DNA from: Semisulcospira habei
Lineage: Eukaryota; Mollusca; Gastropoda; Semisulcospiridae
Assembly: GCA_036245525.1 (NCBI GenBank)
Contig: BTPG01000006.1
Coordinates: 91,716,450 to 91,780,449 of the forward strand
DNA length: 64,000 nt
Direction of reading: 5' to 3'
How positions within the stretch are numbered: the stretch's first letter is position 1; every line of letters begins with the position of its first letter. The notes beneath the pieces are model-generated. The model had not been told where the DNA came from and ran no database searches. It was given only the letters and a program-made list of their open reading frames with translations. Below are positions 219 to 44,843 of the stretch, in pieces. The translations under genes and the position numbers were made by a program.

Positions 219-1725
219 TCAGACTGGCGGCGAAGGAAGAGGTCGTCTGGGTAGATCGACGTCGGACTGGAGGAGGACTGTCGGGCCTTGGCGACTAAGG
301 AGTCCATCGGCCCGGTGAACCGCCAGGGCAGAGGTTGAGACCGAACGGGAGCGCGGGAAACTGGAGAAGACGCCGTCGATCGCGACCAGCGAACTTCCTG
401 GGGGCCTGGAGCATCGAGACAGCAGGTACACATCGGAAAGGTCCAAGCCGCCTGCGCAGTCTAAGGCTGGACCGCTGCTTTCAGGGCTCTGGCAGTCTCC
501 GTCCGGAAGGAGGGCCGAAATCTGTACAGGCCGAAAGAAGAAACCTGACGCCACTTCCTCCAGGCTTCGGAACGAAAAATCGGCGGCTGTAGAAGGTTGG
601 CGAGTCTGAGAATCGGAAAACCTCCGTGGCAACTTACCTGAGGGAGGAGACACCTCCCGCCGCGCGGAGGCCTCAGCGAAACACGGGGAACATGAGACCT
701 CGAGGGAAAGGACGGCCAAGACGGGGTCAGGGCACAGTCGGCGGAGGCAGCGAAGCGTAGACCGACGCGAGGTAGGCGGCGCGGTAGGCGACTCCGCTAA
801 GAGCCGATCAACCCGGCGGCGTGATAGAAGGAAGCCAGGCGTCTTCCACACGACGAACCAGGGCTTGAGTGAGCAGCTCCAGGAACCCAGCGCAGGCTAA
901 GGTGTTCCGCACCAGGGACGCAGTCAAATCCAGGCCACGAGGGGGGGAACGGGGAAGAAGAGCGGAGCCGCCAGCTTGCGACACGGCAGGGGGGTCCATC
1001 GCAGGAAGAGGGATGGAGGAAGCCTGGGAATGGCCGGCATACCAGTCCCGACGGAAGGTGATGTCCAGGCCAGCCGGCCAGCGACGAACGGAGAAGAACA
1101 CCGGCCCTCGAGACGCGGGAAGTTGCAGGTGCGCTGAGAAGGCATCACGCAGCTCCTCAAATCCAGGCGGCTGGGGAAGCGACTTGAACCTCTTAACTTG
1201 ACGCTCGGCATCCACCAAGGCAGAGACCTTCCTCTTCAGGGGGGGAGAGGCTGGGCAGGAGTCCGCTGGCAGAGTGGCTGCGGTGATCCTGGCGGCTTCA
1301 TCCAAAGCTAAGAGGGTCTCCGAACGGGACGATGACGGAAGGGTCGAGGGGACATCAACACCGACGTCGGCGGGCGAAAGGGAGCGACCATCCTCACCCA
1401 ACAGGGCTGAGACGGAGTCCTCGGGCAGCAAACTGATGGCTTCTTCGTCCAGGGGGCGGCGAGAAGGCAGGCGAGGCACTGAGGAAGGCCGAAGCTTGGG
1501 CGGGGACGCGTGTCGAACCTCGCGGGAAGCCCGGGAACGAGCCGGCAGCGACGACGGAGGCGGGGATCGCCGAGGCGAACGCGAGAAGAAGCGATGAGGG
1601 GTCCTGTCCGGTGCGCGGGAACGACGTCTGGACGAAGGACGGCGGACAACCGAAGAGGGGCGCCGATGAAGGCGGCGACGCGGCGGACGCATCGAACGGT
1701 GCGAGCGCGAACGCGCACGCGACAA
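219..1725 (-). pseudogene. GC-rich decayed reading frame, possibly retroelement gag-like
   Basis: A 305-residue frame (1725-808) starts with about 60 residues dominated by Arg, Ser and Pro. A mixed middle follows, then a more globular end with motifs such as PPLKRKVSALVDAERQVKRF and QPPGFEELRDAFSAHLQLP. It stops at 808, and a second open frame (851-219) in another phase continues the same base composition, as expected after a frameshift. I do not recognise a defined domain. The basic Ser/Arg-rich head, compact tail, lack of introns and broken frame resemble the gag-like ORF of DIRS or LTR retroelements in invertebrates, but that is inference. A decayed host gene is the alternative. GC content is far higher than in the AT-rich introns that follow. 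Confidence 0.33.
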
Positions 1726-1815
1726 GGAGTGGCGGTGGGAGCGGCGACGATCCCGGCGCGGGAAATGATCCTTCCGGCGGCGCTCGCGGGCGAGCGCGAG
1801 TGTCTAGAACTGACG

Positions 1816-2393
1816 GTGGAACGGGATGAGTCAGGGGCGCGACTGTGTCGCGTAGGTTGAGGCGGAGGTCTCTCCTGGCCGGACTCAGTGAGAAGGGCTC
1901 TATGCCGGCGTACAGATCCTCCGGAAGGATCAGTGGGCTTATCGTGGAGAGAGAGAGAGGAGGAAGGCCAGTCAACGTGGGACGGCTCGTGGCGGACTGC
2001 TGCAGGCCGGGCTCAGTGAGGCGGGCGCTCTGCCGGTAAACAGACCCTCCGGAAGGGTCAGCGGGCGTGGCAGCAGTGGCAGTCCTCTGATCAGCCAGCA
2101 AGTGAACTGAAAGTGGAACGGTGGGAGTCGGGGCGCGACTGTGTCGCGCAAGCTAAAGCTGACGCCTCTCTTGGCCAGACTCCGAGAGCAGGGCGCTATG
2201 CCGGCGTTCAGATCCTCCGGAAGGATCAGCGGCTTGTGGTGAGAGACGGGTGAGGAAGGCCAGTCAACGTGGGACGGCTCAGGGCAGACTGCTGCAGGCC
2301 GGGCTCAGTGAGGCGGGCGCTCTGCCGGCAAACAGACCCTCCGGAAGGGTCAGCGGGCGTGGCAGCAGTGGCGGTCCTCTGGTCAGCCAGCAA
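1816..2393. repeat. Tandem duplication, about 297-bp period
   Basis: Two copies, near 1816-2102 and 2113-2393, both run from GTGGAACGG through GCGCGACTGTGTCGCG to GTCAGCCAGCAA. Each holds small palindromes around TCCTCCGGAAGGA and CCCTCCGGAAGGG. The array lies immediately upstream, in - strand terms, of the GC-rich broken frame. It could be its leader or terminal repeat region. Confidence 0.7.
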
Positions 2394-4946: not shown

Positions 4947-7900
4947 GTATTGAGCGTTTTCCGACTGTTTCGCTGACAAATTAAATCTGAATTTGCTTTT
5001 CGGAGCGGCTGAGTGTAATCTTCTTCGCAAGTCTTATAACAGCAACGTTTCTGTTAACCTTCTGAAAGAATTTGGTGCTGATAAATACAAGACAGTTCGG
5101 AATACCTTACATTTACACCATTGATTACTGTGGAACATGTGTAAATTTGCTTTTTAGAAAACGCGTTGAGGGGCTACGGTACATCGCTTTTTGTCTCGTT
5201 GTTAGTGTTGTAATAGTTTGCATTGTGTTGTAGTCTTGTACCAAACGCCTTCGCTAAGTTACAGTTTACACACTTCCAGGAGCTCATGACAATGAAGAGA
5301 ATATCACGATGGTCTTCATAACCTTCTGGTGATGATGATCGTTATCCAGAACAGAGTCGGGAGCTCATTGGCACATATTCATAATCCACAAATCCATGTT
5401 TTCTCTAGATTTAGTATTTACAAAGTTAACGTTCCGCTGGAAAAGCCGTAGCGGTATGTGGTTGTTATATTTATTTCAGTTTCATGCATACAAATAAATT
5501 TCCCATCCTCATGAAAAATCAACACTAGTTTTATTACATTATATCATATCAATCTTATGTGCTCCTATTACTATGTCAAACGACCTATGGCTCAGTCTTT
5601 CTGCAGTCACTGAGATACAGCAGTCCATTTATTCTATTATGTGCTAATCTGTTATGGGCATATTATTACTTATCACACTTCACACTCACAGACAAAAATG
5701 GTGAAAAATAGTATACATATCTCTGAAATAGCTTTGTGGTGGTGTCGGTCAACCATGTGTAACATCATCATAAACTTAAACGTAGCTGATAATTTAGCTT
5801 AAGCCTGACATATTTATCATAGAATATTAACAAACAAATGTCATATTCATAGGACATGGTGCTAGTAAATTGGATTCTTTTTGTAGGTACTGGCAGGTCA
5901 AAAAATAAATATCACATAGAGGAGAACAAACAGAACACAACACAAAAAAAATATCTTTCTATCTTTATTGCCTATTGGTTCAAAAGTTATGGGCAAGAAA
6001 TGTACAGCAAATATTCCGCAGTTTTTACCCAAAATCGGTAGACAGTAAGATATTGCCCAGTTTAGGCCAGCCTAACACAAAAAAATATTAAGCACCGACA
6101 TCCCAGAATTGCATCTCTATATAATATAGAAGAAGCCCAATTTTTTTCAGGTCTATAAGCCTGTAACTTTTACAACGCTGCTGCCCTAAAAAAGCTGAAA
6201 ACTGAGTTTTACAATGGCTCTCCAGAGTGTAAAAACTTCAAAATAGCGTATCTCGGTCATTTCTTGTCCAATTTTAAAAATTCAAACAGTGTTTTGCTAA
6301 GTTCTTAAAGCTCTTTTAAGTAAGTAAGTAAGAAAGCAATAATTGAAAACCATCTTATTTTTACCCCCCCCCCCCACCCCCCTCTCCAACACATACTGTT
6401 GAGTTGCTTTCTGCAAACCATTCATTAATAAGCCAATCTCTCCACATCACACGCAGTACTGCTGTTTGTATGCAGTGTGCCTTGCTGTGACATCCTGCAT
6501 GTTGTCCAGGAATGTCATCTCATCCAAGAATGTGATGGACGAACGTCTGTCTCCCTCCATGATTTTTCATGTCTCATCATTAGGTGTACCTGGAGCATAG
6601 TTTGTTATTCACTGATGCCTCAATGTTCTTCCTGCTTCCTTTACCAGTGTGGATAAACACACCAAATCTAAGAATTCTGAAGAAATTTCTGCAATTGGAA
6701 ACAAGAAAGGATCTTAACAATTGATGCAACAACACCTAGACAGTTAGTTAACAATGATGTGTGTGTGTGTCACTGAGAGAGAGAGAGAGAGCAGAGCGAA
6801 GGGAGAGGTAATATTTCACCTTATTTGGTCTTTACAAATGTCTGAGAGGGCCATCTCAAGCAGTATAATTTATGCCACAAAAAAACAACGAATAACGCGA
6901 AAGCGAAACAACTTTTCTAGCAGACAATGGTCCCACTTCCGGTCTAGACTTCCATTTGACACATTGTTTTCGAACGCTACTTTACCCATTTTAAGACACC
7001 ATATATACCCATGGAATTTATTGAACATGTTTAGAAAACCCTATTCTATTACATACATTTGTCTTTTGATGTAAACATACGCCTGCAGTTGTGACCGATC
7101 TCTCACAGTCAATAACACGAAAGCGAAACAAATTTTCAAGCAGACGACGGTCCCACTTCCAGTCTAGACTTTCATTCAACACATCATTTTCGATCACTAC
7201 TTTACCTGTTTTAAGACCACCATATATACCCATGGAATTAATTGAGCATGTATAGAAAACCCCACTTTATTACCTACATTCGTGTTTTGTCTCTTGATGT
7301 AAACATATGCCTGCAGTTTTGACCAATCTCTCACACACTGCATGCGGTCGTGACTTCGAACAAACCGACCACAGCCAGTGTGGAAATATGCATATTACGT
7401 CAAATTATCACACAAACATTACCCAAATCTTAGGTTAAGTCACAATAACACATTGTAGAACCATTATAAGGCAAACAAAAACGCATTTCTTACCTAGATC
7501 ACGCTGGAGACTGCTCAAAACCGTCGGTGTGTTCGTCGCACGCCATGGCTGCCATTGTGAATAACACGAAAGCGAAATGGCCAATGAGAGGACTCGATTT
7601 TTGACAAAGCTACTCTTCCCGGTTGAAGCTGTCGCATTTCTGATTGGTCAAAATTAAAGAGAAAAACGTGGGCTTTCCCAAAAGTATAGTCTTCGAGGGG
7701 GTATTTTTCGAAAATCACATTGAAAATTGCATTTATTTTTTTTTTTTATCTATTACTGGGCTAAATTTAAGAAAATATTACACTTCTTTATATCAATGTG
7801 TAGGTCTGAACTCGGTCAATGGCATTGTGCTATTTTTAGATGTGTAGCTTGCATGGGGAGGAGTAGCCAGTCGTTTTCCCGAGGGGGTTGGTTCGCACGG

Positions 7901-10900: not shown

Positions 10901-13900
10901 GTGGTGCTTTTTGTAAGCGCTCAGTAAAATGGACCTGTGAAGTTTTCTTTGCAGTGGTTAAGTTTTCTTGATACTGGTACTATATTCTAGATCATACAAT
11001 GATGCATACTATTAATTAATACTGTGATGGGCTTCTAATTGTCAAATTTTAGTATAAAGGGAGGTGTCTGTGATGAGACCTTTATCACGATGGTCTTCAT
11101 AATTCAGTATTGATGATAATATCAACTCTGAGACATTCTTGCCTCCTGTAGACCTGGCTAGAGCAGTGAGTTTATGTTCACGCTGGATGACTCCCAGTTG
11201 CCGAGAGCAAAGTCACAGCGGAATATAAGCATCTACCAGAAGCGTCAACAACACTCCGAATGTATCTAACATAGATCCTTGTGAGCTTGGAAGGCTCATG
11301 GGGATCTATGCCTCTTGGAGATGCTCAGAGTATTGTCTATTGAGGCATCTTACATGCACTGATTATCTGCCGGGCTGTATGGCTTTAGGGCTTAACGGGT
11401 TATTATCTAGTCAGATATAGTTTATTTTATTTCACTCACCTCCGTTGCTAATGGTCCGCTGTGCAGTGCATGTGTGTGTGTGTGTGTGTGAGAGACTCGG
11501 AGAGAGAACGGTGTCACGCGCAGAAATAATAACATGCCTCCTGTGGAGTGTTACATTACAGTCTTTTTTTATAAATCAATCACCACTTGCTACAGTTTTA
11601 ATTCCATGCAGCCCTTATAATGAAAAGTGATGCCTGTTTTTTTTGTTTTTCATGTTTAGGCTGTCATTGGCACATACATTGACAAAAAGTGCCCGTTCAC
11701 TGGCAATGTGAGTATCCGTGGTCGCATACTGTCAGGCGCAGTCCTCAAGATGAAGATGCAGCGCACCATCGTCATCCGCCGTCAGTACCTGCACTACGTG
11801 AAAAAGTACAGTCGCTTTGAGAAGCGCCACAAGAACATGTCTGTGCACCTCAGCCCATGCTTCAGGTTGGTAGAGTTACATCTTTAGTTTGTCCATTTTC
11901 ATAAATGAAGGATGTATTGCAATCAGATTGGGAGCACAATTTTTTTCTTTTCTTTTTTTTTTTTTTTTTTTTTGCAAATCTGTCTGGAAGTAAACATTTT
12001 TCTACACCACTCTAGAAACAAATGTCACTTAGTTAAGTGTCAGTTGACCTAAGAGGTTAGTCAAGTGTCAGTTGACCTAAGAGGATTCAAAATTACTTGT
12101 ACAAGTTTTGCTTTGCAGTAGTAAACATTTTCATGAAATGGCTGATTTTGCATCCCCAGTGACACCGCCATGACCCATTAGAATTTTTGTAATTGATCAT
12201 TTAGCTGTATGTATGCTGGCTACCCCAAAGACATACTTGACCTATCTGTGAGAATGTCCAGTCACCTCCATGGTGTTTTTTGGGCGGACGTGCAAAGCAA
12301 AAATGAGTCCTAAGTTTTGGGCAAGTGGTCGTCCATTCCATCGTCTGTGTTAAACTTTAACGTTGGCACTTTCTCTGAGACTATTCAAGTCACATTCTTC
12401 AAACTTGGCCCAAGGATACATTGTGGTAAGACCTTTCTAAACATACCAATTTGAGTGACCTCTCACAGGGGATCAGGAAATAGGTCAAAAATAGATATAT
12501 TTTGACATAATTTATTTTTTCTCAAATACTATTCACAACTTCAAACCCAAACTTGGTACACAGATACCTGATGGCAAGACCTTTCTATACATACTAATTT
12601 GGTTGATCCATCAAAAAGGTCAAGGGTCACGAGCTCAGGAAATGGGTGAAAAATAGCCATATTTTGACAAAAGATGTTTTTTTCTCAAATACTATTCACA
12701 ACTTCAAACCCAAACTTGGTACAGGGATGCCTCATGGTAAGACCTATCTATACATTTTATTTTGGATGACCCCTCAGAAAGGTCAAGGGTCACAAGGGCT
12801 CAGGAAATAGGCTCGAAATAGCCATATTGACAAAAGATGTTTTTTTCTCAAATACTATTCACAACTTTAAACCAAAACTTGCTACAGAGATACCTGTTGG
12901 GAAGTCCATTTTATGCACACTAATTTGATTGATCCCTCGGAGAGGTCAAAGGTCACGAGAGCTCAGGAAATAGGTCTAAAATAGCCATATTTTGACAAAA
13001 GAATTAAGATGTTTTTTTCTCAAATACTATTCACAACTTAAAACCCAAATTTGGTACAGAGATACCTGAGGGTAAGACCTATCTATGCATACTAATTTGG
13101 ATGAACCCTTGGAAAGGTCAAAGGTCACAAGAGGCTGGCAAATGTGTAAAAATAAAATGCTGATTTTTGATAAATTGTAGGTTTTCCCAAATTTTGGCAA
13201 ATTTTTCAACCAAATTTGGTACAAAGATAGCTGATGATAAAAGTAAAAACCTTCCTATGCATACTAATTTTGTCGACTCGTCACAAAGGTCAAGGCTCAT
13301 GGGGGGGGGGGGGGGGGGGGGGGGGGGTTGACAGATGTGTGAAAAATGCTTACATTTTTAGAAAACATGGATTTTGCTGCTGCAGAAGCCAGCTCTTGTC
13401 ACAAAGGTCACACATGTAAATTGGTCATACACGTAAGCCCATAATGGCTTTGCCTTTTTTGTTTGTGCATGTTGTTTCTCTCTGTATTAGTATTTCAGTG
13501 TGGGTGGGTGGCACATGTCTGTGATGAAATCTTTTATTTAATCACGATGGTCTTCATAGCTTTAGATAAAGCTTTGATGACAACTTTTATTCTGAGACTA
13601 CCTGTGCCAATTTTTGTTTTAAATGTTTTGAGTTTCATTTTGACAAACACATGAATGCCTGTTGTCAGATTTAAGCTTGTAGTTGTATTCAAGATTAAAT
13701 TCTTAGCCCTAGAGGTGCATACCAGTATGAAAAGCTGTACTGGTATTTTTATGGTAATTTTGTCGTATCACTCAGTATTTTTTAATACTGACAACCGCAC
13801 ATCACTGTTTCAACACATCCCACTTGACCAACACATGAGCGCGTAGTCACATACGCGTGCTAATTAGAGAGAGATTGATCAGTTGATTGATTAATTCTTT

Positions 13901-16900
13901 TTTTTCATTTTTTTTTTTTCAACATTTAAGCTTTCTCTGAAAAGGTGGTCAGCAACAGGGTGCAACAGTTTGACCACGCCTTTACCATAGCCGACACTTA
14001 GTTCGCTTCCAGCTGCCAGAGAGATAAGGCTGCCGCGAGTTCCACTCTCGCCCGCTCATTCTATTTATATCGCACTACTGAGCGGTACACGGCGTGACCG
14101 GCTCTCTGCCGCTATAACAACTACCTACACATTTGTATTCATAACACATCTCTGCCTAAAGTGACTGTTGTGGAAGCAACATCGTTCAAATGTTGAAATT
14201 CTCACCTACACACTGATACCAAACATGACAACATTACGACTTGCACTTGTGTAGCAGGTCATGGTGAAAATAAAGAGAACGGGAATTTGTTGATGTACGA
14301 AAACGAGAATTTATTGTGAAATTGACAAAGTTCGCACAGCCATAACACAAAGACGCTACTTTTCCCAGTGAAACACACTTGCATGCATAAGGGTTAGCAT
14401 GCCTACAGTACGTATCACTTAATGGATTTTGGGTTCATGGTGGGGGACGGAAGCAGGAGGGTAATTAATGAGGTCACTGACAGGTGTCGACAGACAAGTT
14501 CCAGACATCCGACTTGGTGTACACTCCCCGCATTGGGGAAAGAGAGGGCTTAGTTACACGGATACTATTGAGGAGATAGCCACGTTTCTTTCTTGGGAAA
14601 TAGTGTAACACTAACAGTCAACCTTGTAAATGTACTTTTGATTTAACTTTTGATCATGATGGAGTCTGATGAAACGCGTACAGTCTGTGTACACACAGGT
14701 GTGTTCCATGCAATGAGAGTTAATGCATTGTGCAGAATATGTGGCGAGAGATCACAAAAGAGATACACGGATAAAAAGTCATTTCTTTGTATCAATTATG
14801 AACACTTAATCCACAAGTGTTATGGAATTAATATCCAGGAAGACAAAGACATGATGCACTCCAAAACAATGTGTAGGAGTTGCTATTGTCGGATGAAACG
14901 GATAGACTCGACTGAAACACGTGTGTCCGAGGAGACAACGCGAAATGCGGCGTCTGATATTGCCTCATCACAACACATTTGGACCATGTTCCATCCAAAT
15001 ACGAGTGTTGAAGAATGTGTCGCGTGTGTTCACTTCATGCAGCTAGGTAAAGGAGGACGACCAGCGAAGCGGGGTTCCCGGCATGGAAAGAAACGATCGT
15101 TTCGATCCGCGGAATGTGACACTCATAACACTGACACTGATAACAGCACTAATGAAGGTGATAGTGGTATACAAGTTTTTATTCCGCCGACGTCTACTCC
15201 CCGTAAAACGGTTCTTATGTCTAGTGTGTCAGAAAATGTGTTAAACCTCAAGGTATGTTTAAAAACACTGTTGAATATTGTGACCTGTTATGGACTGATC
15301 GTATTTCGGGATGGCAATAGCAGTCTGTGGAGTACCGAGACGGCTGCGGGCGAGAAATGCCAGAACACGCGACCTGTCAGTGACCTCATTAACCACCCTC
15401 CTGCTTCCGTCCCCCACTATGAATCCAAAATCCGGTAAGTGATACTTACTGTATGCATGCTGACCCTTATGCACGCAAGTGTGTTTCGTTGGGAAAAAGT
15501 AGCGTCTTTGTGTTATGGCTGTGGGAACTTTGTCAATTTCACAACAAACACCGACATCAACAAATTCCCGTTCCCTTTATTTTTACCATAACCTACTACA
15601 CAAGTGTAAGTCGTAATGTTGTCATGTTTGGTATCAGTGTGTAGGTGAGAATTTCAACTTTTGAACGATGTTGCTTCCACAACAGTCACTTCAGGCAGAT
15701 TTGTGTTATGAATACAAACCAGTAGGTAGTTGTTATAGCGGCAGAGCGCCGGTCACGCCGTGTACCGCACAACACGCGACCTGTCAGTGACCTCATTAAC
15801 CACCCTCCTGCTTTCGTCCCCCACCATGAATCCAAAATCCGCTAAGTGATACTTACTGTAGGCATGCTGACCCTTATGCATGCAAGGGTGTTTCGTTGGA
15901 AAAAGTAGCGTTTTCGTGTTATGGCTGTGGGAACTTTGTCAATTTCACAACAAACACTGACATCGTACATCAACAAATTCCCGTTCTCTTTATTTTCACC
16001 ATAACCTGCTACACAAGTGCAAGTCGTAATGTTGTCATATTTGGTATCGGTGTGTAGGTGAGAATTTCAACTTTTGAACGATGTTGCTTCCACAACAGTC
16101 ACTGTAGGCAGAGATGTGTTATGAATACAAATGTGTAGGTAGTTGTTATAGCGGCAGAGCGCCGGTCACGCCGTGTACCCCACAGTAGCAAGCGATATAA
16201 ATAGAATGAGCGGGCGAGAGTGGAATGTGACCTCGCGGCGCCTTATCTCGCTGGCAGCTGGAAGCGAACTAAGTGCTAGGCGCCAGCACTGGCTGGTAAA
16301 GCCGTGTGACCAATCAAAATCAATATTTGTGTTTACATATTTACCCATTTTATTTGCTAGATTTGTTTTTCTGATAATAAGGGGATAACATGCATAAAAC
16401 CATACCTTTGCATTTTGTTTAGCTTAAGTTTGATGCCTTTTTATGCCTAAAAGCTTGAGAATGAATGATGCCGATTTGTGACATGGCTCATAGTGCGTGA
16501 CAAGAACTTGTTTGATCAGACAAATTTACTGCTTTAAATTTAACAAACGGTTTTGATCGTTTAGAACTTATGTAACACTGCACAATACCATTCATACATT
16601 TTATACCTAGCGGCCGATTTTACGTAGTTTAATTGCATGAAACTTTTTGTCCAGTGGTTGTTTCAGTCTGCTCCAACTCAGACCGATAACATTTTTTTCT
16701 CCAGTACTGTGCTTACACAGCATGAACTACTTTTATACATACTACTGGAAATCGTGTTCATTGACGCTTCTGTACACGCTGAGTTTATAGCAAATAATGC
16801 CAATGAATGACCTTTAAGAAATGCAGCCAAGTTTTGGGTCAAGATCTTTTGAGTATCAACCGCTGGAACAAAACGATAAGTCCCGCGTCTATAACAGAAG

Positions 16901-18328
16901 GTGTGCACCATTTTGTTACTGTATTCATACACGTGTTCCGGTGGAAGTAGCGTAAAGTGCATGAAAGTGTGGGAATGGGCCTTTGTTTATTAAAAGCCAT
17001 TCACTGAAAGTGTCGGGTCAGTTAACAACTTCTCATGTCAACTGCTGTGTGCGTACAGTCCCCCAAACAGTAAAATGCAAGAATCATGCAACTTAGTCAT
17101 TGTTTGCCTGATTCTTTGTAGGTATTGTGCTTCTGTGTCACAAAGGTTGATTTGGAACATGCTGTGCAAAGATTGTATGCACTTCATGGTGTGCGAGTTC
17201 GAAGAAACGATGTTCGGTTGATGCATGGACGCAACAATACACTCGTGACTAGTAAATACGTCTTGTGTCCGTGAAGCAACTGCGTGAATGTCTGTGTACC
17301 CGACTGCATAATGGCTTGTTCTTTACAATATAGTATAGACGCAGGGGTAAAATTTGACTTTTCTTGCATTATTTTTCACTTGTGAGCATTCATTTTAATC
17401 CATTTTGTGCGCAACTTCAATTCAGGTACTTGTCATAGAAAACGTCTAAACATTGTTCACTGCCCAATTTTTGTCCACCATGCTTTAAGAAGCCGATCCT
17501 GCGGCCAGTATAATGGTAGTTTCAAATCTGTGGCCCAAAAATGTTTAAATAAACTATAATAAGCTTGATTCAATACTCCTATCATGCATCTAAAATTAAA
17601 TTATTTAATTACGCTCGTTTAAAGGCTCTGTTTGGTGTCCATGTAGCAACCTTCAAAGATGCCCGGTCACATTAATTATTTGTGGCTCGCACAAAAACCA
17701 CTGTGTGAACTATCTTTTGTGTTCCTCCTAAAATGATACATTGTAGGGATAGTAATAGTACATAATACCACATTGCTAGAAGAATTGCAGGAAGTTGTAT
17801 TTTGACTTCTTAAGTCACACATTCTGACCACCTTTTCAGAGAACGGCCCTTAGGCACATACACCTTTATAATAAAGTCCTTGTTCATAGAAATAAAGTTG
17901 AATGAATAGCTGGTTGTTTTTTGGGTTTTTTTAATTGCATGGACAGCTTGCCACTGTTAATACTGACTGAAACTTTAAAGTGCCAAATTTAGTAAGCAGA
18001 GACAACAATATTTGATGGACCGTGACCATCTGACATACTGCCAGCGCTTAATTATGTTGGGCATATTAGTTGACATAACTCTTGAAGTTTGAATGTTTTT
18101 TAAAACAAAAGACTATTCAGTATTTTGCTCTTTTTCTTCTGTGCATGTAGGAGAGTTCAGAGTGCATTCAGTATTTAAAGTGCTGTTATGTGCGCTTGTT
18201 GCAGGGATGTGAAGGTGGGTGATGTGGTGACGGTGGGAGAGTGCCGGCCCCTCAGCAAGACTGTCCGATACAACGTTCTCAAGGTGGTGCCCAAGTCTGG
18301 CACAAAGAAGGGCTTTTCCAAGTTCTAA
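4929..18328 (+). CDS. RPS11: 40S ribosomal protein S11 (uS17), four coding exons
   Basis: Component of the small ribosomal subunit; binds 18S rRNA early in assembly. Coding exons 4929-4946, 10633-10758, 11660-11865 and 18205-18328 join in frame (474 nt, 157 residues; the human protein has 158). All junctions are GT-AG. Diagnostic stretches are [10 protein letters not shown] and GLGFKTPRE in exon 2, [31 protein letters not shown] and [13 protein letters not shown] in exon 3, and [20 protein letters not shown] in exon 4. The start is fixed by the MADQ N-terminus, the Kozak context and the TOP leader. Introns of 5.7, 0.9 and 6.3 kb are long for a ribosomal-protein gene because of transposon insertions. 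They host four U35-like snoRNAs. The exons look intact, with one broken lineage of repeats around them and no frameshift. Confidence 0.97.
5190..5480 (+). repeat. Intron 1 segment duplicated at 8970-9480, copy 1
   Basis: About 290 bp around the first snoRNA is similar to 8970-9480. Shared flanks include TAGTTTGCATT upstream, and CCACAAATCCATG and TATGTGGTTGTTA downstream. The second copy is longer because a hairpin element (about 9045-9247) lies between its upstream flank and the snoRNA. This shows DNA-level duplication of the snoRNA with its surroundings. Confidence 0.7.
5280..5366 (+). ncRNA. C/D-box snoRNA, U35 (SNORD35)-like, intron 1 copy a
   Basis: The guide TCACGATGGTCT (5304-5315) equals the U35 guide. 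It pairs with the 28S segment AGACCGTCGTGA as I remember it, with one G-U pair, where U35 (yeast snR73) directs ribose methylation. The C box is ATGAAGA (5292-5298), C' is GTGATGA (5329-5335) and the D box is CAGA (5352-5355). A terminal stem pairs GAGCTC/GAGCTC plus GAC/GTC. The C and D boxes depart from RTGATGA/CTGA at positions that contact each other in the kink-turn. Host: RPS11 intron 1, same strand, so release by intron debranching and trimming is expected. Confidence 0.75.
5367..6890. other. RPS11 intron 1, left part
   Basis: AT-rich intronic DNA with no recognised gene. It holds a C-rich tract near 6364-6382 and a short (GA)n run near 6776-6791. I see no coding or RNA signal. Confidence 0.5.
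6891..7335. repeat. Tandem duplication in RPS11 intron 1, 220-bp period
   Basis: Units begin at 6891 and 7111 with AATAACRCGAAAGCGAAACA and run through ATATATACCCATGGAATT to CTCTCACA. A third partial start (AATAACACGAAAGCGAAA) occurs at 7560. No coding potential is evident. Confidence 0.75.
7340..8960. other. RPS11 intron 1, central part
   Basis: AT-rich DNA. A loose repeat shares the GTTATTTTG and AGAAAGTT words between 8615-8680 and 8700-8765. No gene or known element was recognised. Confidence 0.4.
9045..9247. mobile_element. Hairpin element (AAGAGGCATAGATCC family) in intron 1
   Basis: A central hairpin at 9084-9150 pairs GCAAGAGGTATAGATTCTCA with TGAGGATCTATGCCTCTTGC. The flanks look like degraded inverted termini (CCATTCGGTGCTGA and CAGTGGACACTGAACAAG), and the right edge is at TTAA (9248-9251). 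It interrupts the duplicated snoRNA segment. Confidence 0.55.
9284..9368 (+). ncRNA. C/D-box snoRNA, U35 (SNORD35)-like, intron 1 copy b
   Basis: Guide TCATGATGGTCT (9307-9318), one C-to-T from the other copies and still pairable by G-U. C box ATGAAGA (9295-9301), C' GTGATGA near 9334, D box CAGA (9355-9358). The terminal stem AGCTTCTGAC (9284-9293) pairs with GTCAGGAGCT (9359-9368) over 10 bp with one G-U. It shares with copy a the unusual ATGAAGA/CAGA box pair. Confidence 0.72.
9701..10240 (-). pseudogene. hAT/BED zinc-finger transposase-like fragment
   Basis: Read on the - strand, one frame gives [18 protein letters not shown] and then [16 protein letters not shown], a C-x2-C...H-x4-H finger. 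Later comes [17 protein letters not shown], then [13 protein letters not shown]. The order of finger, AEHNLP-type helix and FP-x-K segment is familiar from hAT-like zinc-finger transposases and derived host proteins. Stops interrupt it (TAG before the finger), and no catalytic DDE core remains. It lies antisense in RPS11 intron 1, so it is a dead fragment. Confidence 0.45.
10633..10758 (+). CDS. RPS11: RPS11 coding exon 2
   Basis: 126 nt, phase 0 at both ends, bounded by TTGCAG and GAG|GTATTC. Encodes residues 7-48, including [10 protein letters not shown] and GLGFKTPRE. Confidence 0.96.
11065..11135 (+). ncRNA. C/D-box snoRNA, U35 (SNORD35)-like, intron 2
   Basis: Canonical C box GTGATGA (11070-11076), guide TCACGATGGTCT (11085-11096), C' TTGATGA near 11110, and D box CTGA (11128-11131). 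The terminal stem TGTC/GACA flanks the boxes, and an outer stem GGAGG (11060-11064)/CCTCC (11142-11146) could assist processing. Intron 2 of RPS11, about 520 nt from the 3' splice site. Confidence 0.88.
11262..11345. repeat. Degenerate hairpin of the AAGAGGCATAGATCC family
   Basis: ACATAGATCCTTGTGAGC pairs imperfectly with GCTCATGGGGATCTATG in RPS11 intron 2. It is an older, more diverged copy of the family seen at 45245 and 47852. Confidence 0.55.
11660..11865 (+). CDS. RPS11: RPS11 coding exon 3
   Basis: 206 nt between TTTAG and AG|GTTGGT. It ends two bases into an Arg codon. Holds the conserved rRNA-binding core ([28 protein letters not shown]). Confidence 0.97.
12370..13230. repeat. Minisatellite in RPS11 intron 3, about 163-172-bp period
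   Basis: CTCAAATACTATTCACAACT recurs at about 12521, 12684, 12847 and 13019, each followed by AAACYYAAACTTGGTACA and then by AGGTCAAGGGTCACGA. Degenerate units extend both ways. This is a diverged tandem array with no coding potential. Confidence 0.85.
13301..13327. repeat. 27-nt poly-G tract
   Basis: An uninterrupted run of 27 G on the + (sense) strand of RPS11 intron 3, directly after the minisatellite. Comparable G runs lie near 25190, 28276, 32500, 32610, 44186, 62170-62320, and a C run near 51605. Confidence 0.9.
13517..13598 (+). ncRNA. C/D-box snoRNA, U35 (SNORD35)-like, intron 3
   Basis: C box GTGATGA (13521-13527), guide TCACGATGGTCT (13542-13553), C' TTGATGA (near 13574-13580), D box CTGA (13592-13595). 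Terminal stem GTC/GAC, with an outer stem GGCACA (13510-13515)/TGTGCC (13603-13608). RPS11 intron 3, just upstream of the N-RAG element. Confidence 0.88.
13969..14486. repeat. Left inverted arm of the N-RAG element
   Basis: Runs from TTTGACCACGCCTTTACCA to AATGAGGTCACTGACAGGT. Its reverse complement is found in both right arm copies with scattered mismatches. Contains TTCGCTTCCAGCTGCCAG and TCATTCTATTTATATCGC as conserved landmarks. Confidence 0.85.
14656..15252 (+). CDS. RAG1 N-terminus-like zinc-binding protein, first exon only
   Basis: Starts at ATG 14656, after an upstream in-frame TTG. A Cys/His region, [16 protein letters not shown], then [20 protein letters not shown] and [12 protein letters not shown], then [13 protein letters not shown] and GRPAKRG, follows the order of the RAG1 N-terminal domain (CR-x-CG, DLI...DSIHP, FCHNCW, WHPH...CDIC, GLKRK). 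This region of RAG1 binds zinc and supports the recombinase. Related sequences occur in mollusc and other invertebrate transposons. The exon appears to end at AAG|GTATGT (15252). The open frame runs on to 15438, but that part reads through intron and the right arm. The catalytic part is absent. Sense orientation relative to RPS11. Confidence 0.72.
15364..16311. repeat. Right inverted arm of the N-RAG element, duplicated in tandem
   Basis: Copy 1 starts at 15364 and copy 2 at 15771, both with AACACGCGACCTGTCAGTG, a 407-bp period. Only copy 2 continues into the outer arm sequence (TATAAATAGAATGAGCGGGC to CTGGTAAAGCCGTGTGACC). Copy 1 stops after CACGCCGTGTACC. Confidence 0.85.
16312..17820. other. 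RPS11 intron 3, after the N-RAG arms
   Basis: About 1.5 kb with no recognised domain, repeat or RNA. If the 20-bp repeat at 17824-17843 is the outer terminus, this would be internal element sequence; otherwise it is ordinary intron. Confidence 0.35.
18205..18328 (+). CDS. RPS11: RPS11 coding exon 4 with stop codon
   Basis: Begins after TTGCAG at 18204, completes the split Arg codon, and encodes [20 protein letters not shown] and the basic tail ending GFSKF before TAA. Confidence 0.97.
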
Positions 18329-18338
18329 ACACGATTTG

Positions 18339-29411: not shown

Positions 29412-30480
29412 TTACTGCTGTTGGCTCATGTACTGACAGAGTGTTTCTCTGATGTCACGAGGTCTAGCTGCCATTCCTGCTTGTCTATCTTCAAGGACGG
29501 GTCGAGGTGGCTGCTGTCTTCTCATCCCCTCTTCCTCGCGCCGTACTTCGTCGACCCACTGTTCGATGAAGTCTTCACGGTTGAGTTCACACATATTGTG
29601 TAGAACAGCACACGCCAAAAATATGGATGGTGCTCGGCTTATGTGCATTTCCATTGTTTTCAGCAAGACTCGCCATCGACCTTTAAGACGACCAACTTGA
29701 AAGCCCGTTCAACAACCATCCTTGACCTACTCAAGCAATAGTTAAAACGCTTTTCTTCGGCAGACATAGTAGCACTTGTCCTAAACGGCTTCATGAGCCA
29801 CTCCTGTAATGGGTAGGCAGGGTCCCCAAGAAGTACAAGAGGAATGTCATTTCCTCTGATATTTCTTGGTCTGGCAGGGAACATAGGACGGCCTTCTTCA
29901 GCACGATGAAATAGAGGAGAGTTTCGAAAAACACGCGCATCGTGCGAACTCCCTGGCCAGCCAGCAAACACGTCAACGAACATAAGCTGGTGATCCACAA
30001 CACACTGGGCAACCAGCCTTTCCTGTTTCGGAAATCCTCTTTGAATTGTGATGGTGCTGTCACGGGAATGTGTGTCCCATCTATTGCCCCAACACATTGC
30101 GGGAACCCATACTTCTCCTGAAAACCATTTACAACTTGTTGCAAACGCTCCCCTTCAGGAAATTTGACAAAGACTGGAAGAAGATAATCAGTTATTGCAT
30201 TGGTAACACTGTGCACTGCCAGGCATACAGTAGAGCGAGCCGCGGCAACTCCAAACAGGTTTCCCACTGTTCTGAAATTTGCACCGCTTGCAAACGCCTG
30301 ATACACGGCGATCGCAACTCGGTGAACATGAGAAATGGTCTTTCGAAACCTAGATTGTTTATTTGTTACGTAGGGCCTAAGCTGTCTGCAGAGCCAGAAA
30401 AACGTATCTTTAGTCATTCTGAAGTCGTCAATCCACTGTCTGTCTGTATATGTACCCAAGTGACCACCCGTTCCCACCAA
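29412..30480 (-). pseudogene. PIF/Harbinger (HARBI1-like) transposase, two frameshifts
   Basis: DDE superfamily transposase. The first frame (30480-29995) has WIDDFRMTKDTFFWLCRQL, TVGNLFGVA, and QCVGAIDGTHIPVTAPSQF with the first catalytic Asp. Near 30025 the frame shifts and continues QLMFVDVFAGWPGSSHDARV, FRNSPLF and VLLGDPAYPL with the second Asp. A second shift near 29690 restores the GRLKGRWRVLLKTMEMH motif and then LACAVLHNMCELN. Overall length and motif order match HARBI1-type proteins (about 350 residues). The broken frames mean it is inactive. Further N-terminal sequence may be missing. Confidence 0.88.
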
Positions 30481-32973: not shown

Positions 32974-33144
32974 TAAGTTAAGGTGGGAACTTTAGGAATG
33001 ATGTTGCCGTGGATCCCGGCCATTTACTAGACACAATCCTATATCCTGCCAAAGCTCTCCACTTAACACGTTATTGCCGTTCACGGTTTAAATGAAGAAC
33101 GTAAGCATATATTCGTATTTGTTCGCGTGTTTAATATATATATT

Positions 33145-34159
<1,015 letters not shown>

Positions 34160-37404: not shown

Positions 37405-40400
37405 CCTCGCGCTGGGACCATATGGCGTTGAGGCGCGTCCCCTGGGTGGTGGATAAGGGGTCCCTCGCGAGAGGGGTGCACCGAATGAAATAAGGTGCCG
37501 TGAACCAACATGGTCTAAGGGAAGGAGACCCCGACAGAAAACCCCTGGTCCTCCTAGTAAGGGGGTTGGGCGTGGGGGTAGCTTCCCCACCCTGCAAATA
37601 AAGAAATAGCTACAAAAACGCCGACGAATAGACAAACAGCAATTCCTTTCCTGGAGGAGGAAGGTTCTTCTACCAGAAGATTTATGACGTCGTGTGGTGA
37701 AAGCCGGAAGCCACAGGACCGAGCCACCTCCCTCTATCCAGGGACACAATCATGGGCACATGGAATGTCAAGACCATGTACCAGAGCGGGAAGTCCGCCC
37801 AGATAGCAGCGGAAATGCAAAAGTACAACATTTGCCTGCTAGGTATCAGTGAAGCCAGATGGACGCAGTCTGGACAGAAAAAAGTGGGGAGATGATTCTG
37901 TATTCAGGTCATGAAGAGGAGAATGCCCTCCATACAGAAGGTGTAGCATTCATGCTGTCACCAGTGGCACAGAGAGCGCTGATGGGCTGGGAACCTCTTG
38001 GGCCAAGAATTATCACAGCAGCCTTTAGAACCAAGAAAAAGATCAAGCTGAACGTCATCCAGTGTTATGCGCCCACTAATGACAATGACGAGGAAGAGAA
38101 ACAAGAGTTCTACGACCGACTCCAGAGTGCTGTGGACAAATGTGCGGAGCGAGACATCACCATCATCATGGGCGATTTTAATGCCAAAATAGGGGAGGAC
38201 AACACCGGATACGAAGAAGTGATGGTTAGACAGGGACTAGGGGAGATGAGTGAGAACGGGGAGAGGTTTGTAGACTTTTGTGCTCTAAACAGACTTGTCA
38301 TTGGAGGCAGCATCTTCCCACACAGAAGAATACACAAAGCAACGTGGGTCTCACCTGACCATACTACAGAGAACCAAATAGACCATATCTGCATTAGCAA
38401 GAAATTTGGAAGATCCCTTCAAGATGTTCGAGTGAGGAGGGGAGCAGATGTCGCCTCAGACCATCATCTGCTTATCTTAAGAATAAAGCTCAAGTTAAAG
38501 AAAAGCAGCACAGGGACAAGAAGAAGACAGCGCTATAATGTAGGCCTCCTGAGAGAGACTGGAGTGAGAGAAGAGTTCAAACTGGTGCTGTCCAACCGGT
38601 TTCAAGCGCTACAGGAGCTAGTAAATGAGGAGGAGGCGTTCACCACAGAGCAGCAGTGGAGGGCAGTTAGAGAGGCACTGAACTCAACCTGCAAAGACAC
38701 TATGGGGTTCAAGAAACACCATCACAAGGACTGGCTGTCGGCACAGACCTTGAAGAAGATAGAAGTGAGGAAGCAGAAGAAAGCGGCTGTCAACAACAGT
38801 CGCACGAGAGCAGCCAAAGCAATGGCACATGAGGAATACTCGGAAACCAACCGCGAGGTGAAGAGGAGTATCATAGCAGACAAGAGAGCCTACACAGACG
38901 GCCTAGCAGCAGAGGCAGAAAAGGCAGCAGGCAGCGGCAACATGAAACAGCTCTACGACATTACCAGAAGATTGTCTGGCAAGTATGGCCATACAGAAAG
39001 ACCAGTAAAAGACAAAGACGGCAAGCCTATTGCAGACAGAGCAGACCAACTCGACAGATGGGCCGAGTATTTTGAAGAGTTACTGAACAGACCCACCCCA
39101 CCCGACCCCCCAGACATCCAGCCAGCAGAGACCGACCTACCCATCAGCTGTGACAGACCCAGCCGGGAAGAGATCAGAAGAGCAGTGGCATTTTTGAAGA
39201 ATGGCAAAGCAGCAGGGCCAGATGGCATCCCAGCCGAGGCTCTGAAAGCAGACCTAGAAACAACAGTAGAGATGCTGTACCCACTGTTTGGGAAAGATCT
39301 GGGAAGAGGAGGTGATGCCGGCTGACTGGAAGAAGGGGTACCTAATCAGCTTCCCAAGAAAGGCGACCTCAGCAAGTGTTCCAACTACAGAGGAATCACC
39401 TTGCTGTCAGTACCAGGAAAGGTCTTCAACAGGATCATCCTGGAGAGAATGAAGAGCTTCTTTGACCCCCAGCTGAGAGACCAGCAAGCAGGATTCAGGA
39501 AAAACCGATCATGTACAGACCAGATTGCCACTCTCCGCATCATCGTGGAGCAGTCTCTGGAGTGGAGCTCCCCGCTGTACGTCAACTTTGTGGATTACGA
39601 GAAAGCATTTGACAGTGTGGACCGAGAGAAACTCCTACGACACTACGGTGTACCCACAAAACTCGTCTGCCTGATCAAGAGCAGCTACGATGGCATGACA
39701 TGTCGCGTGATCCATGAAGGGCAGTTCACCAGGGAGCTCCAGGTCAGAACCGGCGTCAGGCAGGGGTGTTTGCTGTCTCCGTTCCTCTTCCTACTGGCCA
39801 TAGACTGGGTCATGAAGAGGACCACAGAGCAGAGAAGAAGCGGAATACAGTGGACACTGTGGACACAGCTTGACGACCTCGATTTTGCAGACGACTTGGC
39901 TTTACTGTCCCACACTCATCAACAAATGCAGGACAAGACTACGAGGCTTGCTGACATCTCGTCCCAAGTGAGTGAGTGAGTGAGTATAGATTGCTTTAAG
40001 TCCCGCAAGCGACAAAGGCATTCTCAGGACGTGCCTGCGCTAAATGAAGAAAAGAACTGCAAGAAGCGCAGACAGGAGGGAGAATTTCAAAAGAAAAATA
40101 CAGATGAATGGACCAGAAAGACAGAAATACAAACCCCCAAAAGAGTAGAACCCACCTTGCAGGGGTTAGACAAGGTGACCCTAGGAACTAAAAAGTAGAC
40201 AACCCCACCAAGGTTTCCTAGGGCAGACCCGGTGGGGGGTCGTCCCAAGTGGGCCTCACCATCCACAAACAGAAAACAAAGACAATGAGGCTGAACGCAA
40301 CCAGGGAAGAACCAGTCTTGCTTGCTGGCACCCCGTTGGAGGAGGTGGAGTCCTTCACCTATCTCGGGAGCATCATCGACAAAAAAGGTGGCACTGATGC

Positions 40401-41667: not shown

Positions 41668-43654
41668 TCATACGAGAGTTTCTAGAGGAGTGACGTCATC
41701 ACTGTGCATGGAGCTGAGCCCCGTGTCGTCAGAGTTACTGTCCCCTTCCTCGCGCCATCGACATAACGTCAGCTCGTCTGAAAACCGCACGCACTTGGCG
41801 CGAGCATGGGGCACTTGTTTTAGAGAAGGCACGTGCTGATTGCTGGCAGCACGCTTGTCGTTCATTGAAGGCACTGGGAGCCTGTCTGTTCTGTGAGCTA
41901 ATATCGTTGGTTTGTCCACTGCACGTCCACAGCCTGATACAGACTCGGGGTCAACTGACCTATGTGCGTTTTGTAATGAAGGTCCGTAGGATGTGGAATA
42001 GTCTAAATCATGTCCCTGATCAGACTGGTAAACATCGCCATTTGAAAATGGGCTAGACGGTAGCTTATTTAGGATGACGGGCACTGCATCAGTCCTGTCA
42101 TACCGCTCTCCTGGCGACAGACACATTTCACTCTGTGTGACACCAAGCGCGTCTTGCAGTTTCTTGTCCACGGCGTGACGGCTTGTTGTGCTGTCGGTCC
42201 ACCGACTTCCAACCGACTCAGTAAAATCGTCGGCAACAGAATAATAACTGAGGCGTGGAGGTAAATGTTTTTCTGCGGTATTTCTGCTGTGGCTATGGGA
42301 CGGTAAGTCCGATTGTCTTGTGCCGGCAGTGTTTGCACTGAACCTAAAGAACGACTTTTCAATGTCAGTAATGTTTCTGCTGTAACTAGCTAGAGGGTCC
42401 GCTTGATTTGTATCTGCAGTCCTTGTACCGTAACTAGGGGACGGTACGTCAGTGTGTTCATCCCCGTCCGTTCCCGGCATGCCGCTGTCCGTGCTGGAGT
42501 CACTGGCCGACTGATACAGACCGTCATCACGCCAGGAACACTGGTACTCGCCGTCAGACACCGCTGAGGGATGGTTCGTTCTGGACACAGACTTGCTGAC
42601 GCGCCCGTCGGTAAAACCTACTGCTGATGTGGAATGGCTGGGCTCTCGCCATATCGAGGGATTCTGACGTCCATGAGATTCCAAGTGGTTTACACGCGTC
42701 GTTGACGCGTGCATACCACTTGGAATCTCATGGACATTCACGTTAGATGTCAGTAAATTCTGTGTTTGCGCCAAGTTGCAATTGATAAAATCAATGTGTT
42801 GTGATCTCTGTTCTGGTCTTGAAAGGCCTTTAACATTGGCAACGTCAGCTTTCTGATCACCATTTTGAACACCACGGTCGAGAGAAATGCCATTTCCTTG
42901 TGCTTGTTTGCCTGCACTGAACAGCTGACTATGCGAGTTATTCTGCTGCCTGCTAAACGGAGCGTTCTTGGTGGACTGTTCACAGTATGTGTCCCACTGC
43001 TGGCTGTCAGCTTTAGCGCTGGACGCCGCCTCAATGTCTGCTAGTTGCTGTGCCAGCGTGTCTAGCCTGTGACTCCTGTCCTGCGCCTGTTTGTCCCAGT
43101 ACGCCAACTCGCGAGCCACTTCCAGCTCCTGTTGCTGTTGCAGCACACTGGCCGCCACCGCGCGCGTCACCTGCACGTGCACACTCTCCAGCTCACGATC
43201 CGCACGACCCTCGTCACGCGAGGGATGCGCGCGATCTGTGACGTCACTCAAGCTGAAGGTCTGTATCTGACGCGCGAGACTGCAGGCGACGTGATGCGTG
43301 TGGTCCAGACGCTGGGTGACGTCATACAGCTGGTCACAGAGCAGTAAGTAGTCGTCCAGCCGGTCCTCGCCTACCTCCAGCAGCACGGCGTCCAGCGGAT
43401 CCTCGCTACTGCTGCTGCAGCTGTCGCCGGCACCGTCCACATCCAGGTAGGAGTCCTGCACGTAGTCCTGCCCCATCTGCTGCACGCGCCGCGCGTGCTG
43501 CCGCGCCTCGTGCTGGGTGATCTGGCGCTCCGTGCTCTGCACGCGCTGCTGTAACTCCTGCAGGCGGCGCTCCTGTCGCACCATGTGCCGCACCACGTGT
43601 TCTAGCGCACGCAACTTGCCGCACCGAATACACTGGGGGCGCCCTCCGTTACAC
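41668..43654 (-). CDS. RASSF9/10-like coding exon 3 with stop codon
   Basis: 1987 nt. Begins after CTATAG, completes a split Arg codon, and opens with CNGGRPQCIRCGK before the coiled coil. Ends in TGA beside a hairpin MITE and contains an inverted repeat at 42669-42735. Confidence 0.9.
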
Positions 43655-44843
43655 CTATAGACACAACACAGGGATAAAATGAGTCAATGCTGCCGATATG
43701 ACGAAAGCCAGTCTGTTCATTATAATCTGGCTTTTCTCAAACATAGACATGCTAGTCAAACTTAGTTTGCAACGAACGATTCCTAACACCGAACGAGAAA
43801 GAATCATTGACAACACTCTGCACATCAATTACACGCCAAAATGACTCACGACAGCTCGACCAGAGATCGATTTTGAGCTGCAATCTTGCGTGAGGGTCTG
43901 AAAAGTAACACGCCAAACTGACTCTCACGACAGATCTACCTAGATTCATTTTGAAGTGTCCATTTTGAGTTTGGGGAGTGACAAAATGACTCTCACGACA
44001 AATCGACAAGGAGTCACAGTGGAGTGGCAAGATTGCCTGAGGGGAGTCTCGTGCCAAAATGACTCACGATAGATCGACCCGGGGTCACTTAGGTGTGGCA
44101 ATTTGGCGCGTGGGAAGTAACGCGACACAATGACTCTCAGAGCCATTTTGGAGTGGCAATTTTGAGTGTGTGTGTGTGTGTGTGTGGGGGGGGGGGGGGG
44201 CTACACGCCAAAATGACAGTCACGGCAGATCGACCCGAGGTCATTTTGGAGTGGCAATTTTAAGTTTGTGGATAACATGCCGAACTGACTCACGGCCAAA
44301 TCGACCCGGAGTCACTGTGGAGTGACAAGCTTGCCAGAGGGGAGTTACATGCCAAAATGACTCTCACGACAGAGTGACCCGGAGTCATTCTGTCGTGACA
44401 GTCATTTTGGCGTGTCACCCAACAACGCCATCGCTCTATCCACCAGCGGTCACATTTCAACACCGTCTACCCAGAGGCGTGACGCCTGTCCACACGACAC
44501 TGACCTGCATGTTGCCGCATGCTTGGAGCGCTGTCCCTTAGAGTGCCTGTGCCGGCGACGGGTCCTGGAGTTGCCTGCCCCTGGCGGCAGGAAGTAGTCG
44601 TCCAGGCGGCGCACCATCAGCTGCACGTTGGGCTGCTCCGCCCCCCACGCTGACCACACCTTCACGATTTTCGTCCGACCCTACGCAAGACACAACACAT
44701 GCTTATCACATGCTGTGTTTGTCTTGTACTGTGTTTGTCTTCAGAGTGTATGTGTGTGTGTCACGTGAGCGTGCGTGTTGGGTTCAGTTCGCGGCGCTTT
44801 GAGCCGATTCGCAGAATTGGGTAAAGCGCCTATGTAATAACCG

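What the first reader, a model, noticed from the sequence alone, without database searches (positions are those of the whole stretch)
14656..15252. RAG1 N-terminus-like transposon exon inside an intron of RPS11
The frame carries the ordered Cys/His pattern of the RAG1 N-terminal zinc-binding region (CRICG, LI...DKDMMHSK, MCRSCY, FHPNTS..C..C, GRPAKRG) between long inverted arms. Elements of this sort (N-RAG-TP) were, to my memory, described from Aplysia and bear on how RAG1 acquired its N-terminal half. This copy has an exon-like end (AAG|GTATGT), so the transposon gene was spliced, and the catalytic exons have been lost.
Basis: partly seen in the sequence, partly recalled or inferred. Interest (0 to 1): 0.88.

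Follow-up and report, generated by a model that had tools for sequence, protein, structure and literature searches.

The report
RAG1-tip exon in Chapaev-like transposon
Inside an intron of a ribosomal-protein gene lies a 2.3-kilobase inverted-repeat element whose one long open frame resembles the zinc-binding tip of RAG1, the antibody-gene cutter; its ends and four-base target repeat suggest that it is likely a crippled Chapaev-type jumping gene rather than a relative of the RAG transposon itself.

Summary
The frame at 14656-15252 (199 codons) resembles the RAG1 N-terminal domain. RAG1_imp_bd is its top Pfam family, below cut-off (E 0.0021), with zf-AD almost equal. A four-sequence profile ranks RAG1 sequences 1-3 in the PDB (best E 1e-5; next hit E 2). 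One relative passes the Pfam cut-off. The frame lies between ~500-bp inverted arms (92% identical) in intron 3 of RPS11 and ends at a strong donor-like site.

New: the element's limits, 13975-16306 (2,332 bp), with 5'-CACGCCTTTACCA / TGGTAAAGCCGTG-3' ends and TGAC on both sides. CAC...GTG ends with 3-4 bp duplications are published hallmarks of Chapaev. The ends do not fit protostome RAG-like transposons (5-bp duplications; end consensus matched only at chance). So it is most likely an internally deleted Chapaev-like element that kept the exon for the transposase's zinc-binding N-terminal ('Chapa') domain.

Not shown: full-length copies, a DDE core, splicing, the host, or identity with Aplysia N-RAG-TP, whose paper is not held. 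The genome search did not complete. New member of a known kind, of moderate interest.

The parts
13971..13974 (.). left target site duplication TGAC
   Evidence: identical to 16307-16310; end scan
13975..13987 (+). left terminus 5'-CACGCCTTTACCA
   Evidence: pairs with 16294-16306; the end pattern occurs only at these two places in 64 kb, mean 0.00 in 100 shuffles
13995..14485 (+). left long inverted arm
   Evidence: 91.8% to the reverse complement of 15779-16275
14656..15252 (+). frame or exon with three CxxC pairs (C26/29, C73/76, C121/124) and a basic patch, like the RAG1 N-terminal zinc-binding domain
15250..15258 (+). candidate 5' splice site AAG|GTATGT
   Evidence: 11th of 4067 GT sites on the + strand; untested
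15361..15771 (-). extra, partial right-arm copy (tandem duplication)
   Evidence: 92.3% direct repeat of 15768-16184
15779..16275 (-). right long inverted arm
16294..16306 (-). right terminus TGGTAAAGCCGTG-3'
16307..16310 (.). right target site duplication TGAC
11660..11865 (+). RPS11 (uS17) exon 3, upstream of the element
   Evidence: Ribosomal_S17 E 6.6e-14 and 40S S11 chains, best E 2.5e-38; exon edges read from the sequence
18205..18329 (+). RPS11 exon 4, downstream of the element
   Evidence: Ribosomal_S17 E 1e-9; edges read from the sequence

Best explanation
This is likely an internally deleted, non-autonomous Chapaev-like DNA transposon of 2,332 bp (13975-16306) in intron 3 of RPS11, with CAC...GTG ends, TGAC on both sides, long inverted arms and one remaining long open frame that resembles the zinc-binding N-terminal domain of RAG1. 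The inferred working: a complete transposase made by another copy would bind the arms, cut next to CAC, and paste the element into a staggered 4-bp site, which gives the TGAC repeat. The retained exon would have been that transposase's N-terminal module for DNA binding and nuclear import (the 'Chapa' domain), spliced at AAG|GTATGT to catalytic exons that this copy has lost. Shown: ends, duplication, arms, open frame, RAG1 likeness, host gene. Inferred: family, mobilisation in trans, splicing, loss of the catalytic exons.
For: Ends and TGAC duplication. In 2,000,000 random pairs of places in the window, 695 had CAC...GTG and 4 of these also a 4-bp match. PMC4079192 (passage): Chapaev hallmarks are generally a 3-4 bp TSD and invariable 5'-CAC/GTG-3' termini. 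PMC4411706 (passages): the Chapa domain is an N-terminal part of RAG1, named after Chapaev. RAG1 likeness; relative P0003 passes the RAG1_imp_bd cut-off, 23.5 against 23.3 bits, over residues 8-140. Three CxxC pairs in the order of RAG1 C110/113, C175/178, C210/213, then a basic patch (PMC3124419 passages, which also report two bound zinc ions, nuclear localisation and binding to double-stranded DNA). Arms at 92%; no transposase domain in the 12 open stretches of 60 aa or more inside or overlapping the element.
Against: No catalytic core and no second copy were seen, so Chapaev is inferred from the ends and one domain. The frame's own Pfam score is below the cut-off and zf-AD scores almost as well; in P0003 zf-AD is ahead (26.7 against 23.5 bits). 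In one search the single stretches are weak (independent E 0.031 and 6.4 for the best chain, 0.034 for the other two). The third Cys motif alone finds neither RAG1 in the PDB nor RAG1_imp_bd. P0001 and P0002 give no RAG1 match of their own. The target match can be read as 5 or 6 bp (TGACC, TGACCA) if the left end lost one or two bases. TGAC is not the TWA target of the Chapaev3 subgroup, and CA...TG ends with 2-5 bp duplications are common to the whole CMCT group. The Chapa domain is also credited to TransibSU.
Confidence: 0.65

Rival explanations
1. It is a decayed RAG-like (RAGL/Transib) transposon that kept only the RAG1L N-terminal exon.
For: RAG1L N-terminal zinc motifs occur in mollusc RAGL transposons, which also have CAC ends (PMC7204232 passages); the Chapa domain is credited to TransibSU too. 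A 5-bp duplication TGACC is possible if the left end lost one base.
Against: Protostome RAGL ends follow CACTWMCAAACKTYKBB with AAA at 8-10 and have invariably 5-bp duplications. These ends match 9 and 7 of 17, against a mean of 8.8 for random CAC 17-mers, and have TTA at 8-10. RSS heptamer agreement is 3 and 4 of 7.
Confidence: 0.12
2. It is an N-RAG-TP element in the strict sense: a transposon whose only gene is the RAG1-N-like protein, with nothing lost, moved by an unrelated or unknown transposase.
For: A review describes N-RAG-TP as composed entirely of RAG1 N-terminal-like sequence. The three relatives found are short (148-182 aa), though those searches admitted only proteins of about 110-350 aa. 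A padded search that admitted about 330-1050 aa scored none of 82 candidates at E 10 or better.
Against: A strong donor-like site at the end of the frame suggests further exons. Single-exon frames called on unspliced contigs would look equally short. The original paper is not held.
Confidence: 0.17
3. The frame is an ordinary ZAD-type (zf-AD) zinc domain of a host or other transposon gene; RAG1 likeness is shared zinc-domain chemistry.
For: zf-AD E 0.0037 in the window frame and 6.7e-6 in P0003, where it outscores RAG1_imp_bd.
Against: RAG1_imp_bd is first in the window frame and the only family at E 0.01 for the whole 260-residue frame. RAG1 sequences take the top three places in the PDB by profile. 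The third CxxC pair and basic patch follow RAG1's order.
Confidence: 0.07

Closest known systems
Chapaev transposons (CMC/CMCT group) with a Chapa domain
   Same: CAC...GTG ends, 4-bp target duplication, RAG1-N-like zinc domain (passages: PMC4079192, PMC4411706)
   Different: no DDE core in this copy; about 500-bp arms and a duplicated right arm; no Chapaev sequence was on hand for a direct comparison
N-RAG-TP of Aplysia californica (Panchin and Moroz 2008; paper not held, seen only through passages of two citing papers)
   Same: transposon carrying a RAG1 N-terminus-like protein
   Different: ends, length and duplication of N-RAG-TP could not be read, so identity is untested
RAGL transposons of molluscs and nemerteans (PMC7204232, passages)
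   Same: RAG1-type N-terminal zinc motifs, 5'-CAC ends
   Different: 4-bp instead of 5-bp duplication, TIR consensus agreement at chance, no RAG1L core or RAG2L found
zf-AD (ZAD) zinc-finger-associated domain
   Same: first two CxxC pairs (match over residues 25-92)
   Different: third CxxC pair and basic patch (that ZAD lacks them is recalled)

Membership tests
Chapaev | 5'-CAC ... GTG-3' termini | tested here: met
   hallmark
Chapaev | 3-4 bp target site duplication | tested here: met
   TGAC on both sides; a single copy only
Chapaev | DDE transposase with C(2)C and H(4)H motifs | tested here: inconclusive
   no such domain in the 12 open stretches of 60 aa or more of this copy; other copies could not be searched because the genome search did not complete
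Chapaev | Chapa (RAG1 N-terminal-like) domain | tested here: inconclusive
   resembles RAG1; no Chapaev protein was on hand for a direct comparison
Chapaev3 subgroup | 3-bp TWA target site duplication | tested here: not met
   TGAC here; TWA
N-RAG-TP | RAG1 N-terminus-like protein in a transposon | tested here: met
N-RAG-TP | its own terminal repeats and sequence | not testable with these tools
   paper not held
RAGL/Transib | 5-bp target site duplication | tested here: not met
   4 bp with symmetric CAC ends; 5 bp only if one left-end base was lost
RAGL/Transib | protostome RAGL TIR consensus CACTWMCAAACKTYKBB | tested here: not met
   9 and 7 of 17, at chance
RAG1 N-terminal domain (PF12560) | score above Pfam gathering cut-off | tested here: not met
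   window frame 18.2 against 23.3 bits; relative P0003 passes with 23.5
zf-AD | score above Pfam gathering cut-off | tested here: not met
   window frame 17.9, P0003 26.7, against 28 bits

The most novel reading that the evidence does not exclude
The RAG1-N-like domain travels as a stand-alone, catalysis-free protein on Chapaev-ended elements. Copies like this one would make a DNA-binding tip that occupies the arms and restrains the full transposase, and such a free module could have been the donor of RAG1's N-terminal half.
Probability: 0.13. Interest if true: 0.68.

Novelty: new member of a known kind. Interest (0 to 1): 0.42.

Why it matters
Where RAG1 got its N-terminal half is still argued: either from a separate N-RAG-TP-like transposon joined to a Transib (review), or inherited from a common ancestor of Chapaev and Transib (PMC4411706). 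This copy ties a RAG1-N-like exon to complete ends and a target duplication of Chapaev type in one piece of DNA. That makes the identity 'N-RAG-TP is a Chapaev' directly testable in this genome with the arm and end sequences given here.

Tried and rejected
RAGL/Transib assignment: rejected on duplication length and end consensus. A terminus at the inner CACTTAG (13995/16275): the flanking letters read (GCCGA/CTAGG) give no duplication, so CACG at 13975/16306 was preferred. Catalytic exons to the right of the element, inside the outer 20-bp inverted repeat (13933-13952/17824-17843): of 14 open stretches of 45 aa or more at 16307-17850, the five of 60 aa or more were scanned with Pfam; two gave weak sub-threshold hits (Fibrillarin E 0.12, DUF1514 E 0.13), three gave none. 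Inside the element, the 11 other open stretches of 60 aa or more gave only sub-threshold hits (best E 0.024, no transposase). Structure: both AlphaFold2 models were poor (mean pLDDT 39.7 and 34.8), so no fold search was made. Viral contigs: nothing matched the six peptide patterns. NCBIfam: one weak, far sub-threshold CRISPR-family hit in three of four proteins, taken as noise. Third Cys motif alone against the PDB and Pfam: no RAG1. Rfam at gathering score: nothing. Literature: six searches; no listed title names this element, but only held open-licence papers were searched and only passages of six papers were read (searches cover PMC8355894, PMC4411706, PMC7204232, PMC2996935, PMC4079192, PMC3124419 and PMC12730594, which makes seven).

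Full report
What is there. The frame at 14656-15252 on the + strand is real and open. The longest open stretch of the 886-bp interior between the arms, 241 codons, was not reached in any of 2000 letter shuffles. It encodes three CxxC pairs (C26/29, C73/76, C121/124) followed by a basic stretch at residues 135-147. In RAG1 the zinc-binding central non-core domain (residues 87-217) has pairs at C110/113, C175/178 and C210/213, and a conserved basic region follows at 218-224. It binds two zinc ions and double-stranded DNA (PMC3124419, passages).

Is it RAG1-like? The window frame alone gives Pfam RAG1_imp_bd first (E 0.0021, below cut-off), zf-AD second (E 0.0037) and an uncharacterised family third (E 0.11). 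Against the PDB, RAG1 is first at E 0.016, or E 0.0014 with the first 100 residues, where ribosomal protein L27 is next at E 0.12. Searches of the 5.8-billion-protein collection found three relatives: P0001 (75% identical), P0002 (40%) and P0003 (48%). A profile of all four finds three distinct RAG1 sequences first (E 1e-5, 0.0013, 0.0013), and the next hit, a nuclear receptor, at E 2. The aligned stretches cover the first two Cys pairs; taken singly they are weak (independent E 0.031, 6.4, 0.034). P0003 passes the Pfam RAG1 cut-off over residues 8-140 but scores higher against zf-AD. P0001 and P0002 give no RAG1 match alone, and the third Cys motif alone finds no RAG1. My reading: relation to the RAG1 N-terminal domain is well supported for the first two pairs. 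The third pair rests on order and spacing.

The element. Inverted arms of about 500 bp (13995-14485, 15779-16275) are 91.8% identical, and the right arm carries a second, partial tandem copy. Beyond the arms lies a 13-bp terminus, CACGCCTTTACCA on the left and TGGTAAAGCCGTG on the right; the end pattern occurs nowhere else in the window. It is flanked on both sides by TGAC. With symmetric CAC ends the duplication is 4 bp. Readings of 5 or 6 bp exist only if the left end lost one or two bases. The element is 2,332 bp long. Of its 12 open stretches of 60 aa or more, only the frame in question has a plausible family match.

Which kind of transposon? Chapaev elements are said to have generally 3-4 bp duplications and invariable 5'-CAC/GTG-3' termini; the Chapaev3 subgroup duplicates TWA, which does not fit here (PMC4079192, passages). 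The wider CMCT group has CA...TG ends in most cases and 2-5 bp duplications (PMC12730594, passages). Kapitonov and Koonin name an N-terminal part of RAG1 the 'Chapa' domain after Chapaev; they also credit it to TransibSU (PMC4411706, passages). Protostome RAGL transposons have invariably 5-bp duplications and the consensus CACTWMCAAACKTYKBB (PMC7204232, passages). The two ends here match it at 9 and 7 of 17, where random CAC-starting 17-mers average 8.8. Hence Chapaev-like rather than RAGL. N-RAG-TP of Aplysia may be the same thing, but its paper is not held, and the name rests on two citing papers.

How it would work. The frame ends at AAG|GTATGT, 11th best of 4067 GT sites on the strand. That is consistent with a first coding exon once joined to catalytic exons, which this copy lacks. 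The copy would be moved in trans by a complete transposase. No full-length protein with this N-terminus was found among 82 candidates of about 330-1050 aa. Since calling single exons on unspliced contigs would give the same picture, this does not decide between exon and stand-alone protein.

Surroundings. The element sits in intron 3 (11866-18204) of RPS11, in the gene's orientation. The introns also hold SNORD35-like sequences. A perfect 20-bp outer inverted repeat at 13933-13952 and 17824-17843 brackets the element. It may mark an older element into which this one went. I did not find its duplication.

Limits. The host was not identified. Genome searches did not complete (16 calls), so copy number, linkage of arms and frame in other copies, and the catalytic exons are all untested. 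The structure models were too poor to use.

Noticed in passing
13933-13952 and 17824-17843: Perfect 20-bp inverted repeat TTCTCTGAAAAGGTGGTCAG around the element, unique in the window; perhaps an older element, in which no gene was recognised.
   Followed up: partly
5287-5364, about 9308, 11065-11140, 13516-13604: SNORD35-like C/D snoRNA candidates in the RPS11 introns: three Rfam matches below cut-off (E 0.0006, 0.37, 0.88); these and a fourth place near 9308 share the guide-like CACGATGGTCTTCATA or a near variant.
   Followed up: partly
37853-39979: LINE-type retrotransposon remains: endonuclease and reverse transcriptase in two stop-to-stop frames. A further LINE-like piece at 33092-33787 is my reading; its only Pfam hit at E 0.01 is ALKBH8_N.
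   Followed up: no
29791-30480 (minus): Open frame of 229 codons that looks like a Harbinger-type transposase to my eye; no Pfam match at E 0.01.
   Followed up: no
41668-43683 (minus): Open frame of 671 codons without a Pfam match at E 0.01, perhaps a host gene exon.
   Followed up: no
219-2152 (minus): Four overlapping open frames of 225-331 codons, Arg/Ser-rich; the one scanned (808-1803) has no Pfam match at E 0.01.
   Followed up: no
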